NCBI RefSeq assembly: GCF_018623055.1
Contig: NZ_CP076019.1
Span: forward strand, 806,001 to 870,000
Direction: 5' to 3'
DNA length: 64,000 bases
From: Halorubrum sp. 2020YC2
GTDB lineage: Archaea > Halobacteriota > Halobacteria > Halobacteriales > Haloferacaceae
A model generated the notes under the pieces. That model worked only from the letters and a program-made list of their open reading frames with translations. It was not told the origin of the DNA and did not search any database. Below are positions 40,580-46,600 of the stretch, piece after piece (within the stretch, counting starts at the first letter, position 1; every line of letters starts with the position of its first letter). Made by a program: the position numbers and the translations under genes.

Positions 40580-41587
40580 GTGACGCCCGACGCCGAGTTC
40601 GGCTACGAGCTTCTCGTCTGCCGGTACGCCGAGCTGGTCTGGCACCCGAGCGAGGGCCCCCGACCGGCGATCGTCTCCCGGCAACTGGGCACGAAGGAGC
40701 GCCGCTGGGACACGGTCGTGATCGAGGTCGACCCCGAGGCGTTCGGACGCCGGCGCGCGTTCGGTGACCGGACCATCGGCTCCGACCTCCTCCACGTCGT
40801 CCGGGGCGCGCCCGCCGAGTGGGCGTGGTACCGCGACGCGCTGCCCGACCCCGGCTACCCGTGGCGCTACGTCCGGCAGGCGGTCCACCGCGCCGCGGGC
40901 CGAGACCTGATCGAGAAGCGCCGCGACGGCAACCGGATCGAGATCCGCCGGGTGCGACCCTATCCGGACTGGGTCGAGCGGATCGTCGCGGTCGAGAACA
41001 AGCCGGACCTGGACCGCTCCGCGGCCGACCGGCTCGCTTCCCAACTCGAACACGACATCGGGACCGCGCTCGCCGACGAGGCGTGGCTGGCGACCGAGAC
41101 GACCGGCGAGCGCGTCGAGCCGGCCCTGCTCCGCGAGATGCCCGTCGAGGCCGGCATCCTCGCGACCGACTTCGAGGGCGGGGTCGACGCCAACGCGGCC
41201 GACGTGGCGTGGCACCCGAGCGATCTGTCGCCGGGCGCCGCGGGCGATGCGGACGCGCGTCGCGACCCCGAGACCGAGACGCTCCGGCTCGAAATCGCCG
41301 AGCGCGCCTACGGGAAGGGGTGGCGCTCGTACCACGACACGATGCGGCCCGACTGCCGGCACTTCGAACTCCGGCGCGAGGGCCGCGGGCTCGTCCCGTA
41401 CTGCGCGGCGAAGGGGAAGGTCCCGACCGCGCGGGAGTGTTCCGGCTCCTGCGCGGAGTTCTCGCCGGAGCCGCCGCAGTGGCGCACGAAGGGGTGGCCG
41501 ATCGAGGGCGGTCCCGGGAAGGGGTTCAAACGGGTGTTGGCGCGGCGGCGGGAGCGCGAGCAAGACCGGGTTGAGGGTGGCGACTAA
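40580..41587 (+). CDS. Conserved haloarchaeal protein, possibly DUF5787
   Basis: This 335-residue product starts at GTG and has two parts. Residues 1-200 contain FGYELLVCRYAELVWHPSEG and IVAVENKPDLDRSAADRLAS, reminiscent of a nuclease-like ExK pattern (VENK). The C-terminal region has CRHFELRREGRGLVPYCAAK then CSGSCAEFSP, four cysteines that could hold zinc or an Fe-S cluster. I recall DUF5787 for this family. A PD-(D/E)XK-like fold is an inference from VENKPD and the flanking pattern. Confidence 0.65.
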   Translation: MTPDAEFGYELLVCRYAELVWHPSEGPRPAIVSRQLGTKERRWDTVVIEVDPEAFGRRRAFGDRTIGSDLLHVVRGAPAEWAWYRDALPDPGYPWRYVRQAVHRAAGRDLIEKRRDGNRIEIRRVRPYPDWVERIVAVENKPDLDRSAADRLASQLEHDIGTALADEAWLATETTGERVEPALLREMPVEAGILATDFEGGVDANAADVAWHPSDLSPGAAGDADARRDPETETLRLEIAERAYGKGWRSYHDTMRPDCRHFELRREGRGLVPYCAAKGKVPTARECSGSCAEFSPEPPQWRTKGWPIEGGPGKGFKRVLARRREREQDRVEGGD

Positions 41588-41643
41588 CTTGATCGACAGC
41601 GGGAGTATGTGTCGTACGTCGCTCAGCGTGATGGCGTGGTTGC

Positions 41644-42053
41644 TTATAAACCGGGTCGCGGTGTTGCTGGCGGGTATGTATAACTGATCGACGCTGTAGC
41701 GGTGAACGGCTTCAAAGCCCCAGTTGCGACGGCTCGCGCACCTTGTTGCGCGCCTCGCTCGGTCGCAGTCGCTCCCTCGCTGCGGTGCTTACTGCGGCGA
41801 GCTTCGCCCTCGCGACAGCGTGGCGCTACGCGCCACGGGCAGCGAGGGACTCCGTCCCTCTGGCAACCGGGCTTCGCCCGGTGACAGCCGGCGGCCTCGC
41901 CGCCGGTGACTGCCCCTTTGATTCCCGCCCCGCACCGCTCCGCACAGCACCTCACGCCTCCCCAACCTCGTCGCTGGCGGCGGTCGCCGCCAGCGACTCC
42001 CTCGCACCGGCGGTTCGCGGCCCTTCGGGCCGCTCACCGGGGCGCGCCACCGC
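41644..42053 (+). repeat. Structured intergenic element, copy D
   Basis: TATA-like boxes lie at 41644 and about 41677; the block TTCAAAGCCCCAG follows (41711). The P1 arm has diverged: GTTGCGA at 41722 pairs (with one G-T) with TCGCGAC near 41811-41817, and a mini-hairpin array occupies 41818-41909 before block 2 (41910-41972). Stem P2 pairs GTCGCTGGCGGC (41970) with GCCGCCAGCGAC (41986). Stem P3 has CGGT/ACCG around GCGGCCC/GGGCCGC (42011-42039). The copy ends GCGCCACCGC, followed by TTTATAA near 42060. It stands just before the TnpB element. Confidence 0.78.
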
Positions 42054-42159
42054 CTGCCATTTATAAGCACTCGTCGCCGTCGCTCACGGTTATTTAACTA
42101 CCACATCGCGGCCGCCGATCTGCGACACCCACTCCCGCTATCTTTCGTCGAGGAGAGAA

Positions 42160-42179
42160 TCCCGGCGTTTACGCCGGGA
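42160..42179 (+). other. GTTTAC hairpin upstream of tnpB
   Basis: TCCCGGCG-TTTA-CGCCGGGA (42160-42179) forms an 8-bp hairpin preceded by GAGAGAA and followed by GTGAATCCGAC. It resembles the 3' terminal hairpin of TnpB omegaRNAs and may be the left end of this element or a relic of another TnpB right end. Confidence 0.5.
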
Positions 42180-42277
42180 GTGAATCCGACAACTCCTACC
42201 CAATCCACCGCCGATGGCAGACCGGATATTCCACGCTCATCCACACCATTAAGTAGGATTCTCTACATAGACTATGT

Positions 42278-43528
42278 ATGGCGATTCAGGCCACTCGTAC
42301 CTACGTTGGTTCCATTCGGAACCACCGACAGGTTTGCGATGGCCTTGATTCGCTCGGTGATTCTGCCTCGAAGATTTGGAACGTCGCACGATGGACAGCC
42401 GACCGTATCTGGGACGCAACCGGCGAGATCCCGAACGGTAGTGTGCTGAAATCGTATATGAAGACCCAGTCCTGCTGGAAAGATTTGAACGCACAATCCA
42501 GTCAGAAAGTCATCGAAGAACTTTCTGACGCTTTCCAGTCGTGGTTCGATCTGCGACACAAAGATGAGAAGGCGAACCCGCCCGGCTACCGCAAGCGCGG
42601 AGATACTCGACCACGTTCCACGGTCACATTCAAAGAAGACGGGTTCAAACACGACCCTGAGAACAACCGCGTCCGACTCTCAAAAGGCTCGAATCTGAAA
42701 GAACACTTCTCAGACTTCCTGCTTTGCGAGTACCAGACTCGCCCGGACGTTGATCTCTCGGAAGTCAACCGCGTACAGAACGTTCGTACCGTCTGGAACG
42801 GTGACGAATGGGAAGTTCACTTCGTCTGTAAGGTCGAGCTCGAAACAGCGGATTCGGCTGGCGACGGCGTGGCAGGGATCGACCTCGGCATCACAAACAT
42901 CGCCACGGTCGCGTTCCCGGACGAATACGTCCTGTACCCCGGCAACTTGCTCAAAGAAGACAAACACTACTTCACCAGAGCTGAGTACGACACCGAGGGA
43001 GAGAACGGCCTGTCAGAGCAGTCGAAGTGGGCACGTCGGAAGCTCTCCGAACGTGAGACACACTTCTACCACACGCTAACGGACGCCATCGTCACGGAGT
43101 GTGTGGAACGCGGTGTTGGCACGCTCGCGGTGAGTTGGCCTGAAGACGTCCGAGAGTCAGACTGGGGTAAAACGGGGAATAAGAAGCTCCACTCGTGGGC
43201 GTTCGACCGCATCTACCAGTACCTCGAATACAAAGGCGAGATGCGGGGTGTGGAGGTGCTGAAAGAGAACGAATGGAACACCTCGAAAACGTGTTCCCGA
43301 TGCGGAGACGACACGAAATCGAACCGTGTCGAACGTGGCTTGTACGTCTGCTCGTCGTGTGAGTTGGTAGCCAACGCAGACTGTAACGGGGCAGAGAATA
43401 TGCGTCAGAAGATAACTCCGAGTCCTCACGGCGAGGATAGGAGTAACGGCTGTGTGGCACAGCCATCGACACACTTGTTCGACCGCGAGAGCGGGACGTT
43501 TCACACGAGAGAACAGGTCGTGTCGTAG
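42278..43528 (+). CDS. tnpB: TnpB, IS200/IS605-type RNA-guided nuclease
   Basis: The 416-residue protein has an N-terminal OrfB helical domain, a RuvC-I motif GIDLGITNIATVAF (Asp near 200), a region LAVSWPEDVRESDWGKTGNK that should hold the RuvC-II acid, a zinc ribbon (TCSRCGDD then LYVCSSCE) and a RuvC-III motif ANADCNGAENM. TnpB uses an omegaRNA from the 3' end of the element to cut DNA next to a TAM. No TnpA transposase is present. The frame is intact and looks functional. Confidence 0.96.
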   Translation: MAIQATRTYVGSIRNHRQVCDGLDSLGDSASKIWNVARWTADRIWDATGEIPNGSVLKSYMKTQSCWKDLNAQSSQKVIEELSDAFQSWFDLRHKDEKANPPGYRKRGDTRPRSTVTFKEDGFKHDPENNRVRLSKGSNLKEHFSDFLLCEYQTRPDVDLSEVNRVQNVRTVWNGDEWEVHFVCKVELETADSAGDGVAGIDLGITNIATVAFPDEYVLYPGNLLKEDKHYFTRAEYDTEGENGLSEQSKWARRKLSERETHFYHTLTDAIVTECVERGVGTLAVSWPEDVRESDWGKTGNKKLHSWAFDRIYQYLEYKGEMRGVEVLKENEWNTSKTCSRCGDDTKSNRVERGLYVCSSCELVANADCNGAENMRQKITPSPHGEDRSNGCVAQPSTHLFDRESGTFHTREQVVS

Positions 43529-43589
43529 ACCAGCAAATATCCCACCTGCGGGACGGGAAGCCCCGTCGTTTACAACGGGGAGGATGTCA
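43529..43589 (+). ncRNA. TnpB right end / omegaRNA 3' end
   Basis: After the stop comes GGACGGGAAGCCCCGTCG then TTTACAACGGGG, a stem-loop near 43561-43580, ending AGGATGTCA at 43589. In haloarchaeal IS1341-type elements this sequence marks the right end and the scaffold end of the omegaRNA. The guide would be the adjacent host sequence starting CCAACTGTTTACCGG. The 5' end of the RNA cannot be placed. Confidence 0.65.
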
Positions 43590-43696
43590 CCAACTGTTTA
43601 CCGGACCTGTGTTGACCGAAGGCTTGTGCCTCTCTGTTTTTGAGAACTGCTCCTCGTCCGGTTCACGTGAGAGAGTCCCGCGCTCGAATTGACCGC

Positions 43697-46600
43697 CTAC
43701 GCCAGCGCCGCCGCCAGCTTCTCGATCGGGTGCGCCGGCTCCGGCACCTCGCCCGGGCCCTCCTCCAACTGCGTCCGGCAGGAGGTGCCGGGCGCGACGA
43801 GGGCGTCGCCGGCGCTGGCGTCCACCTGCTCGAACAGGGTCTCGCCGATCGCCTTGCTCATCGAGTAGTGCTCGGCCTCGTAGCCGAACGAGCCGGCCAT
43901 CCCGCAACAGGAGGAGTCGAGCGGGTCGACGCCGTACCCGGCGCGCCGCAGCACGCCGACGGCGTGGTGGTCCTTCTTCGTCGCCTTCTGGTGACAGTGG
44001 CCGTGGTAGGTGAGCGACTCGGTCGGCGCGTCGAGCGAGAGGTCCTCGTCGAGGCGGCGGACGTCGACGTACTCCATGACGCCGTAGGCGCTCTCGGAGA
44101 CGGCCGCCACGTCGGCGTCGGGCACGTCGCTCGCGCCGCCGTCGAGCAGGTCGTGGTAGTCGGACTGGAGCATGACGGCGTCGGAGGGTTCGACGACGAC
44201 CACGTCCCACCCGTCGCGCACGTCGGGCGCGAGCGTCTCGACGGCGTCTCTCGCCGTGGCGCGGGAGACGTCGAGCATCCCCTTCGAGTGGGGCGGGCGC
44301 CCGCTGCCGTCGACGTCCGGAATCTCGACGTGGCAGTTCGCCGCCTCCAGCACGCGCACCGCGGCCTTGCCCGCGCCGGGGTTCGTGTAGGTGGTGTACA
44401 CGTCGGGGAATAAGAGCACGTCGCGGGCGGCCTCCTCGCGCGGGACGCCCGCGCCGCCGCGCGCCTCGAACCAGTCGACGAGCGTCTCCGAGCGGAAGGT
44501 GGGGAGGTCCCGCTCCCTCGCGATCCCGAGCGCCTTCTCCGCGAGGAGGCCGCTCCCCGGAATCTTGTTCGGGAGGTTCGACAGCGGCGCGAACTTCGAG
44601 GCGAGCGGCGCCAGCGACTCGAAGTGACCGAGCAGCCGCGTGCGCAGGTCGACCCCGTGTTCCTCGTGGTGGGCGTGCTCCACTTCGGCCTTCAGCTTCG
44701 CCATGTCGACGCCGCTCGGGCAGTCCACCTTACAGCCCTTACAGCCGACACAGAGGTCCATCACCTCGGTGACGAACTCGTCGTCGGTCGGGTCGTCGGG
44801 GAGCTCGCCGGAGATGGCCCCGCGGAGGGCGTTCGCCCGGCCGCGGGTCGACTGGATCTCCTCGTCGGAGGCGCGGTAGGTCGGACACATCACGCCGCCG
44901 GTCGTCTCCTGCGGGCCGCGACACCCGCCGCAGCCGTGGCAGAGTTCGACCATCCCCTGCATCCCGTTGTCGACCGCCCACTCCATCGCGGGGTCGAAGC
45001 CGGCGTCGTACTCGTAGTCGGCGTCGAACCGCAGGTTCTCGCTCATGTCGGAGTCGCCGCAGACGTTCCCGGGGTTGAGCAGCCAGTCGGGGTCGAACGC
45101 GGTCTTGAGGTCGCGGAACGCCTCCCAGAGGTCGTCGCCGTACAGCTTCCGGTTCCACTGGGTGCGCGCGCGGCCGTCGCCGTGTTCCCCGGACACCGAC
45201 CCGCCGAGCCGGACCACCGCGTCGGTGACGCGGTCCGCGATGTCGACCATCGCGTCGACGTCGTCGACCTGCTTCGTGTTGATCAGCGGGCGGATGTGTA
45301 ACACGCCCGGCCCGGCGTGCGCGTAGAAGGTGGCGAACGTGTCGTTGTCCTCGAGGATCTGCTGGAACTCGCGGGTGTACTCGGGGAGGTGTTCCGGCGG
45401 GATGGCGCAGTCCTCGATGAAGGAGATGTGCTTCTCGTCGGTGGTGCGCGAGAGCAGGATCGGGAGGCCCGCCTTGCGCATCTTCCAGAACCGGTCGCGC
45501 TTCGCGGGGTCGTGCGCCTCCATCGCGTGAGCCGCCCGCCGGGGATGGCTCGTCGTCTCCGCGGCGCCGTCGCTCGGGTCGGCCGCGGTGTCGACGGCCG
45601 CGCCGTCCCCGTCGGCGGCCCCGCCGTTGGCGGCGGCGCCCACCCGGTCCGCGATCAGGTCCGCGACCTTCCGTTTCCCTTCGGCGTCGCTCTCGGCGTA
45701 GAACTCGACGAGCAGCACGGAGTCGGTGCCGTCGGGTAACATGCCGACCACGTCCTCGAACTCCGGCGTGTCGGCCGCCAGCCCGAGCAGGACGTCGTCC
45801 ATCACCTCGACGGCGGCGGGGTCGTGTTCCAGACACGCCGCCACGTCCTCCATCGCGTCGAGGAGGTCGTCGTAGGTGAGCAGCGCGACCGCCTTCGTCT
45901 CGGGGATCTCGACGAGCGAGACGGTCGCTTCCGTGACGGTCGCGAGGGTCCCCTCGCTGCCGGCCATCAGGCGGCCGAGGTTGACGACGCCCTCCTCGCC
46001 GTACTCGCCGCGGTGCTCCGCGAGCAGGCGGTCGAGGTTGTAGCCCGAGACGTTCCGCTTCAGCTCCGGGAAGCGATCGTCGATCTCGTCTGCCTCCTCG
46101 TCGAGGACCCGGACGACCTCGGCGTAGATTCGGGGCAGCAGGTCGTCGGCTTCGGGGTCCGCCGACTCCCGCAGGTCCGCGACCGCGACCTCGCCGAACG
46201 TCGTCACGGTCCCGTCCGCGAGGACGACCTCCAGCTCCTCGACGTAGTGGTCGGTCTTGCCGTACTTCAGCGAGTGCGAGCCGGTGGAGTTGTTCCCGAT
46301 CGCGCCGCCGACGGCGGACTTGTCGCGCCACGCCGGGTCGGGGGCGAACTTCAGGCCGGCGTCCTCGACCGCGGCGTTGAGGTCGCCGACGTACGCGCCG
46401 GCCTGAACGCGGGCGGTCCGGGCGTCGGGATCGGTCGAACGGACCCCGTCCATCTCGCCGGTCAGGTCGAGGACGACCGCCTCGTTGACGGTCTGTCCCG
46501 CGAGCGAGGTGCCGCCGCCGCGGGGGAGGACCGGAATCTCCTCCTCGAAGCAGTACTCGTGGACGGCCGCGACGTCCGCGGTCGACTCCGGGATCACGAC

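What the first reader, a model, noticed from the sequence alone, without database searches (positions are those of the whole stretch)
42053..43589. Intact solitary TnpB with GTTTAC hairpins on both sides, beside element copy D
TnpB has complete RuvC and zinc-ribbon motifs but no TnpA. The right end GGGGAGGATGTCA defines a likely omegaRNA with guide CCAACTGTTTACCGG. A second hairpin, TCCCGGCG-TTTA-CGCCGGGA, upstream at 42160 resembles an omegaRNA end, so there could be two nested TnpB right ends. The element begins about 100 nt after repeat copy D.
Basis: partly seen in the sequence, partly recalled or inferred. Interest (0 to 1): 0.5.

Follow-up and report, generated by a model that had tools for sequence, protein, structure and literature searches.

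The report
TnpB transposon with known guide RNA
This is an ordinary mobile DNA element of salt-loving archaea that carries a likely guide-RNA-directed DNA cutter; the more interesting point is that shorter relatives in the same genome have lost the cutter gene but kept the guide-RNA sequence.

Summary
The window holds a complete IS200/IS605-family element of the tnpB-only (IS1341) type in a Halorubrum genome: 42142-43590 (1,449 bp), behind target/TAM CTAT (42138-42141). TnpB (42278-43528, 416 aa) is intact, but its RuvC-II glutamate is not at the canonical place (S286); the published alternative glutamate (E332) is present. The omegaRNA belongs to a known family: 43410-43581 passes Rfam RF02656 (sot0042). 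The upstream hairpin is the left end of the same element; "two nested right ends" is rejected. The element lies in the CTAT at the end of repeat copy D. An empty site was found for three sibling elements, not for the window copy. New here: the genome carries nine tnpB-less loci (seven with both ends recognised) that keep the omegaRNA. One such lineage, with a compensated pseudoknot, occurs in 50 of 392 genomes searched; 0 of 29 informative loci fetched has a linked tnpB. These may be guide-RNA-only elements that borrow TnpA and TnpB. No RNA or activity was tested.

The parts
41590..42137 (.). Repeat copy D (flank, not part of the element); other copies run on as ...CACTCCCGCTATC
   Evidence: blastn of 41590-42141 against held loci: L173, L181, L182, L183 end in CACTCCCGCTATC; other copies shown differ after CCCG or earlier
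42138..42141 (+). CTAT, target site and presumed TAM
   Evidence: empty sites of sibling elements CTAT|TCGATCTCC (L158) and CTAT|TTGCGGCCC (L154), CCGT|CAACGGTCG (L156)
42142..43590 (+). complete IS1341-type element (1,449 bp)
   Evidence: boundaries from sibling copies and empty sites
42160..42179 (+). left-end hairpin TCCCGGCG-TTTA-CGCCGGGA
   Evidence: conserved at the left end of sibling loci
42278..43528 (+). tnpB, 416 aa
   Evidence: fold like Cas12f/TnpB
42881..42883 (+). codon of D202 (RuvC-I)
   Evidence: D in 80 of 80 aligned sequences
43133..43135 (+). codon of S286, place of the canonical RuvC-II glutamate
   Evidence: aligned with E of 8j3r
43271..43273 (+). codon of E332, alternative RuvC-II glutamate (ExxxxxxCxxC)
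   Evidence: E in 79 of 80 aligned sequences; pattern of PMC10711439
43379..43381 (+). codon of D368 (RuvC-III)
   Evidence: D in 80 of 80 aligned sequences
43410..43590 (+). omegaRNA scaffold (5' end not known; Rfam match 43410-43581)
   Evidence: RF02656 sot0042, 92.8 bits; pair counts
43448..43464 (+). omegaRNA hairpin 2, its loop holding GUGGCA (43454-43459)
   Evidence: sequence; T-A to G-C change on both sides in tnpB-less relatives
43561..43580 (+). right-end hairpin CCCCGTCG-TTTA-CAACGGGG
   Evidence: sequence; pair counts
43585..43590 (+). tail UGUCAC, pairs with the loop GUGGCA (pseudoknot)
   Evidence: 88 omegaRNAs
43591..43606 (+). presumed 16-nt guide CAACTGTTTACCGGAC (flanking DNA)
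   Evidence: first base after the right end; length by analogy with ISDra2 (PMC8612924, passages)

Best explanation
The feature is one complete IS1341-type (tnpB-only) member of the IS200/IS605 family. Shown by sequence: its two ends with one subterminal hairpin each, the CTAT target, an intact TnpB with a rearranged D202/E332/D368 site, and a sot0042-type omegaRNA scaffold that ends in a co-varying pseudoknot. Inferred: a Y1 transposase supplied in trans, a candidate being the tnpA of the element at 2123k that has like ends, moves it into CTAT sites without target duplication; TnpB, guided by the RNA with CAACTGTTTACCGGAC at its 3' end, cuts the CTAT-flanked empty site left by excision and so favours copying the element back. 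Also inferred: the same TnpB may serve the omegaRNAs of tnpB-less relatives.
For: TnpB family models and fold: 7wju Z 23.6, ISDra2 TnpB 8h1j Z 21.0. Rfam RF02656 over its gathering score. Right-end boundary 77 of 77, left-end hairpin 65 of 77, empty sites for three sibling elements without duplication. Pseudoknot 98.5% of cells paired in 88 omegaRNAs against a shuffled mean of 92.6% and maximum of 94.5% in 2,000 shuffles. E332 in 79 of 80, at the place defined by PMC10711439. TnpA element with like ends and the same CTAT. A second copy, 92% identical with an intact TnpB, elsewhere in the genome.
Against: No empty allele could be shown for the window copy. No expression or activity data. The TnpA frame at 2123k has an unclear start (111 aa from a GTG; one search counts a 133-codon open frame). 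The two window-genome full-length copies differ by 8%, so recent movement of this very element is not shown. Model confidence is moderate (pLDDT 72.5, pTM 0.54).
Confidence: 0.88

Rival explanations
1. Two nested TnpB right ends: the hairpin at 42160 is the omegaRNA end of a second, upstream TnpB.
For: Its stem-TTTA-stem form resembles the right-end hairpin.
Against: It recurs at a near-fixed distance before tnpB in siblings, behind CTATC; it has no GTCAC tail, and the only sot match in 41500-44000 is at the true right end; no tnpB ORF ends before it.
Confidence: 0.02
2. The TnpB is nuclease-dead and acts as an RNA-guided DNA-binding regulator, because the canonical RuvC-II glutamate is lost.
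For: S286 in place of the glutamate; sister families have G there.
Against: D202 and D368 are invariant and E332 is kept in 79 of 80 sequences; the exception, the TnpB of the 2123k element, has the canonical E and P at 332; this swap is a published active-site arrangement (PMC10711439, passages).
Confidence: 0.06
3. The tnpB-less relatives are plain decay products; their omegaRNA has no function beyond ancestry and only the end hairpins matter for TnpA.
For: Deletion derivatives of IS605-type elements are known in haloarchaea (PMC3119063, passages). No RNA data for these copies. Within tnpB-less elements the number of pairs with both-side changes is not exceptional (5, reached by 61 of 500 shuffles; 6, reached by 54 of 500). 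Some copies break pseudoknot pairs (4 of 24 with a tail) or carry a 56-nt insertion in hairpin 2. The stretch just before the omegaRNA is equally well kept (0.86).
Against: Both-side changes in the internal stem 3, which is no transposon end: cells changed on both sides 19 against 7.2 shuffled and 20 against 7.1, 0 of 500 each; a compensated pseudoknot and hairpin 2 relative to tnpB-linked RNAs; identity 0.81-0.90 in omegaRNA segments against 0.63-0.77 over positions 1-160 (13 elements); wide spread without a linked tnpB.
Confidence: 0.4

Closest known systems
IS1341-type (tnpB-only) elements of the IS200/IS605 family, with ISDra2 and IS608 as studied relatives (PMC8612924, passages)
   Same: one subterminal hairpin at each end, insertion 3' of a short target without duplication, TnpB with RuvC and zinc ribbon, right-end RNA with flanking guide
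   Different: no tnpA of its own; target CTAT instead of TTGAT or TTAC; alternative RuvC-II glutamate
sotRNA / omegaRNA of Halobacterium salinarum, Rfam RF02656 sot0042 (PMC12558985, abstract, section 3.3.3 and passages)
   Same: overlaps the 3' end of tnpB and the right end; second-hairpin-loop pseudoknot with the end motif; passes the gathering score
   Different: loop/tail letters GUGGCA/UGUCAC, while the best-scoring sot0042 match of this genome (2841k) has UUGGCA/UGUCAA
TnpBs and Fanzors with the alternative RuvC2 glutamate (PMC10711439, passages)
   Same: E six residues before the first CxxC
   Different: RuvC-I motif is DLG, not the DPG of Fanzors and pro-Fanzors
PATEs of Haloquadratum (PMC3119063, passages) and of virus HRTV-DL1, whose end is highly transcribed (PMC10544981, passages): for the tnpB-less relatives
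   Same: IS605-type palindromic ends, no target duplication, no transposase gene; [quoted passage not shown]
   Different: here the kept core is a sot0042-type omegaRNA with compensated pseudoknot and, for 2 copies, a matching empty site; the two HRTV loci I read gave no sot match

Membership tests
IS200/IS605 family, IS1341 (tnpB-only) type | subterminal hairpin at each end | tested here: met
   42160-42179 and 43561-43580; left-end hairpin in 65 of 77 siblings
IS200/IS605 family, IS1341 (tnpB-only) type | insertion 3' of a short target, no duplication | tested here: met
   met for three sibling elements; no empty site found for the window copy
IS200/IS605 family, IS1341 (tnpB-only) type | tnpB present, tnpA absent | tested here: met
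IS200/IS605 family, IS1341 (tnpB-only) type | mobilised by a Y1 TnpA | not testable with these tools
   only a candidate TnpA with like ends in the genome
TnpB RNA-guided nuclease | profile match above curated cut-off | tested here: met
   NF040570 184 bits against 100
TnpB RNA-guided nuclease | D-E-D triad with canonical RuvC-II glutamate | tested here: not met
   S286 at that place; sister families G
TnpB RNA-guided nuclease, alternative-glutamate type | ExxxxxxCxxC glutamate with the two aspartates | tested here: met
   E332, D202, D368; definition PMC10711439
TnpB RNA-guided nuclease | RNA-guided cutting of TAM-flanked DNA | not testable with these tools
   needs a bench assay
sot0042 omegaRNA (RF02656) | score over the gathering threshold | tested here: met
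   92.8 against 88 bits
sot0042 omegaRNA (RF02656) | pseudoknot of hairpin-2 loop with the end motif | tested here: met
   six pairs in the window copy; covariation in 88 RNAs
sot0042 omegaRNA (RF02656) | expressed as an RNA | not testable with these tools
   no RNA data here; known for H. salinarum members (PMC12558985)
nuclease-dead TnpB-like regulator | loss of the catalytic site | tested here: not met
   alternative triad kept
second (nested) omegaRNA end at 42160 | scaffold and GTCA tail beside the hairpin | tested here: not met
   no sot match there; sequence
PATE (the tnpB-less copies, not the window element) | near-terminal palindromes, no duplication, too short for a transposase | tested here: met
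   371- and 431-bp copies; empty sites for 2422k and 1106k; no TnpB frame in nine of nine tnpB-less own-genome loci; for 1667k and 1974k the left end was not recognised by the motif

The most novel reading that the evidence does not exclude
A tnpB-less lineage of IS605-type elements lives on as guide-RNA-only elements: it has kept and co-evolved a naturally trimmed omegaRNA (distal stem 3 missing, pseudoknot re-paired as GUGGCC/GGUCAC), has spread through many haloarchaeal genera, and borrows TnpB from elements like the window's, and TnpA from others, to cut its own empty sites; at least one copy (1106k) thereby carries a guide against a rival tnpB gene.
Probability: 0.5. Interest if true: 0.65.

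Novelty: new member of a known kind. Interest (0 to 1): 0.4.

Why it matters
The window element itself is ordinary. It serves as a well-bounded reference (ends, target CTAT, guide start, pseudoknot, rearranged active site) that let the small palindromic repeats of this genome be recognised as carriers of an omegaRNA scaffold. If those RNAs load TnpB in trans, a genome has many more guides than TnpB genes, and small non-coding repeats gain a means of persistence. Their trimmed stem 3 recalls the engineered removal of stem 3b (Trim2) that raised ISDra2 TnpB editing (PMC10097598, passages).

Tried and rejected
Nested right ends and a nuclease-dead TnpB: see rivals.

Empty site of the window copy: sought with joined flanks (only 5 candidate regions per genome were scored there, so misses mean little), through the neighbouring gene and with the pattern CTATCAACTGTTTACCGG, up to 2 mismatches (none in the own genome; one 2-mismatch match each in 2 of 52 genomes, not followed). 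Not found.

1784k empty sites (L155, L157, L159, L160, L162-L166, L175, L176): the flanks align but the CTAT stretch is too diverged to call the junction; not counted as proof. 2755k, 1469k, 1492k and the window copy gave no aligned junction; 1572k has a half-aligned relative in the listing that was not fetched.

Virus copies: blastn of the 371-bp element against the phage collection gave only 41- and 34-base left-end pieces in two Halorubrum tailed viruses; the loci had no sot match, so the transcribed HRTV-DL1 PATE of PMC10544981 was not shown to be of this lineage.

A tnpB-linked parent of the GUGGCC-type RNA: pattern search, then one locus from each of 30 of the 50 matching genomes; 0 of 30 with TnpB motifs upstream, one of them (L282) starting at a contig edge and so uninformative; the same test finds 71 of 75 tnpB loci. 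The other matches were not fetched.

A first pseudoknot tally used a faulty pattern and is replaced. Alignment A5 holds 17 of the 25 tnpB-less RNAs; the eight with insertions were left out. One search used the 13 of 23 tried elements whose ends my pattern found. The 80 sequences include loci fetched twice under different ids. My notebook (and after) says S285; the right number is S286.

Literature: searches turned up no paper that describes PATEs as omegaRNA carriers, apart from the passages of PMC3119063 and PMC10544981 quoted; only listings were seen for the other papers. A PNAS 2023 paper on rearranged TnpB catalytic sites is recalled and not held. Work on PATEs in Geobacillus and on stand-alone omegaRNAs of IscB is recalled only, unread. 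The names HUH/Y1 motif, IS1341 and TldR-type regulator are used from general knowledge.

Full report
What is there. The window lies at 806001-870000 of a single-contig 3.06-Mb genome. The closest named TnpB relatives are Halorubrum and other haloarchaea; that the genome is a Halorubrum is inferred from them. An ORF at 42278-43528 encodes a 416-aa TnpB. An AlphaFold2 model (mean pLDDT 72.5, pTM 0.54) aligns best with Cas12f and TnpB structures: 7wju Z 23.6, ISDra2 TnpB 8h1j Z 21.0. The genome holds a second full copy at 2866129-2867581 (92% DNA identity, open frame), a more distant intact TnpB at 2841k (56% protein identity) and a fragment at 1997k.

Boundaries. Of the 80 TnpB relatives fetched, 77 have a right end found by GGAGGATGTCA; in all 77 the next base is C and the base after it is mixed, so the element ends in GTCAC at 43590. 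On the left, 77 loci have upstream sequence. An automatic finder called a left-end hairpin in 65, behind CTATC in 53 and TTATC in 1, without such a motif in 11; 49 of the 53 distances listed lie at 134-144 nt between CTAT and the ATG. Of the 12 without a called hairpin, 7 show a recognisable left end on reading. Empty sites in relatives of three sibling elements of this genome read CTAT|TCGATCTCC (2123k element, L158), CTAT|TTGCGGCCC (2422k, L154) and CCGT|CAACGGTCG (1106k, L156), without duplication.

Setting. Copies of repeat D in L173, L181, L182 and L183 run on as CACTCCCGCTATC; other copies shown differ after CCCG or earlier. The element thus sits in a CTAT at the end of a repeat-D copy. 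Its two neighbouring genes are adjacent in 25 of 29 relatives inspected (of 51 that have the oxidase gene), with about 30-550 bp between them instead of 2,110 bp. The repeat-D part of the left flank has no match there, and most of the right spacer is not conserved. No empty allele could be shown for the window copy.

The upstream hairpin. It is the left-end hairpin: it follows the target motif and recurs in siblings, in the tnpA-tnpB element at 2123k and in tnpB-less elements. The only sot match in 41500-44000 is at the right end. Nested right ends are rejected.

omegaRNA. Window 43410-43581 matches RF02656 (sot0042) with 92.8 bits, gathering score 88. These RNAs were found in Halobacterium salinarum as sense-overlapping transcripts, and a pseudoknot of the second hairpin loop with the end motif has been described (PMC12558985, section 3.3.3 and passages). 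Here the loop GUGGCA (43454-43459) pairs with the tail UGUCAC (43585-43590). Among 88 distinct omegaRNAs in held loci that my pattern recognised, 98.5% of cells pair, against 92.6% on average and at most 94.5% in 2,000 shuffles. Five loop/tail classes are fully paired (GTGGCA/TGTCAC 65, TTGGCA/TGTCAA 7, GTGGCC/GGTCAC 6, TTGGCG/CGTCAA 1, TTGGCC/GGTCAA 1) and eight RNAs have one mismatch. On 21 chosen sequences, 14 tnpB-linked and 7 tnpB-less, 97.5% of cells pair and 10 pairs change on both sides against 5.4 in shuffles, 0 of 500. Relatedness of sequences inflates such numbers.

Active site. S286 aligns with the RuvC-II glutamate of 8j3r. Among 80 aligned sequences, some of them one locus under two ids, D202 and D368 are invariant and E332 is E in 79; the exception is the TnpB of the 2123k element, which has MEDL at the canonical place and P at 332. 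E332-WNTSKT-C339 is the alternative-glutamate pattern of PMC10711439 (passages). In the model S286 lies in strand 280-287 and E332 directly behind strand 326-331. The protein is probably an active nuclease of the rearranged type; this was not tested.

How it probably works (inferred). TnpA supplied in trans moves the element into CTAT. A candidate is the Y1 gene at 2123170 (E 1.5e-40), whose element has like ends and the same CTAT; its start codon is unclear and its own tnpB is interrupted. TnpB with the omegaRNA then cuts the CTAT-flanked empty site, as proposed for ISDra2 (PMC8612924, passages). No CTAT-flanked copy of the first 14 guide bases occurs in the own genome with up to two mismatches.

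tnpB-less relatives. The own genome has 17 sot0042 matches at E up to 1. Three lie behind an open TnpB frame (window, 2866k, 2841k). 1997k has a fragment. Nine have no TnpB frame upstream by motif: five 371-bp copies (2422k, 1106k, 1469k, 1492k, 1572k), two 431-bp copies (1784k, 2755k), 1667k and 1974k; for the last two the motif did not recognise a left end. Of the remaining four, one is the tail of the tnpA element and the others are weak. Four of the five 371-bp copies are identical to each other and to one in G039, which suggests recent movement. Their RNA lacks the distal part of stem 3 and pairs GUGGCC with GGUCAC, a change on both sides relative to the window RNA. Within tnpB-less RNAs alone, 96.2% (14 sequences) and 95.2% (17 of 25 sequences, those with insertions left out) of cells pair. 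Cells changed on both sides are 19 against 7.2 and 20 against 7.1 in shuffles (0 of 500 each), but the number of such pairs, 5 and 6, is reached by 61 and 54 of 500 shuffles. Identity is 0.81-0.90 in omegaRNA segments, 0.86 just before them and 0.63-0.77 over positions 1-160 (13 elements). The hairpin-2 sequence of this type, up to 2 mismatches, occurs in 50 of 392 genomes of the order and 32 of 95 genera, with 0 for the reversed control. In one locus from each of 30 of these genomes, 0 show TnpB motifs upstream (29 informative), 24 have a recognised tail, and the pseudoknot is fully paired in 20 of the 24 and lacks one pair in 4; the same TnpB test finds 71 of 75 tnpB loci. One copy (1106k) interrupts another tnpB, whose intact counterpart is in L156.

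Comparison. [quoted passage not shown] The searches named in Tried and rejected showed no paper that identifies PATEs as omegaRNA carriers. Removal of stem 3b of the ISDra2 omegaRNA raised editing (PMC10097598, passages), so the natural truncation is compatible with function.

Verdict. The finding as given is a new member of a known kind with corrected anatomy. The part worth following is the tnpB-less omegaRNA carriers.

Noticed in passing
G000 1106516-1106886 (L010, L188); counterpart L156 1246-2508: A 371-bp tnpB-less element is inserted in another, canonical-type tnpB gene, intact in G049; its guide would match the empty allele of that gene.
   Followed up: partly
L204, L265, L270, L283, L187; RE of L061, L079, L083, L084, L096: A 47-bp two-hairpin insert (CGTCGTCGGGC...CTGCCTGAGGGA...) sits in the right-end hairpin of several tnpB and tnpB-less elements; it recalls the SMR-A elements said to target IS605 palindromes in Haloquadratum. 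9 of 72 listed right ends lie 110-113 instead of about 65 nt behind tnpB.
   Followed up: partly
L008, L014, L205, L212, L213, L228 (G000 1784k, 2755k and relatives): About 56 nt forming two hairpins are inserted in the 3' arm of omegaRNA hairpin 2 in these tnpB-less copies.
   Followed up: no
window 41590-42137: Repeat D is a multi-copy repeat of Halorubrum genomes that often ends in CTATC, and so offers ready target sites for CTAT-specific elements.
   Followed up: partly
G000 2122994-2124899 (L034): tnpA-tnpB element with the same ends as the window element; its tnpB is interrupted by an in-frame stop and is of the canonical-glutamate type.
   Followed up: partly
OP630574.1 25251-25291 (L293) and OP630575.1 63053-63086 (L294): Two Halorubrum tailed viruses carry 41- and 34-base stretches 97.6% and 100% identical to the left end of the tnpB-less element; no sot match there.
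   Followed up: partly
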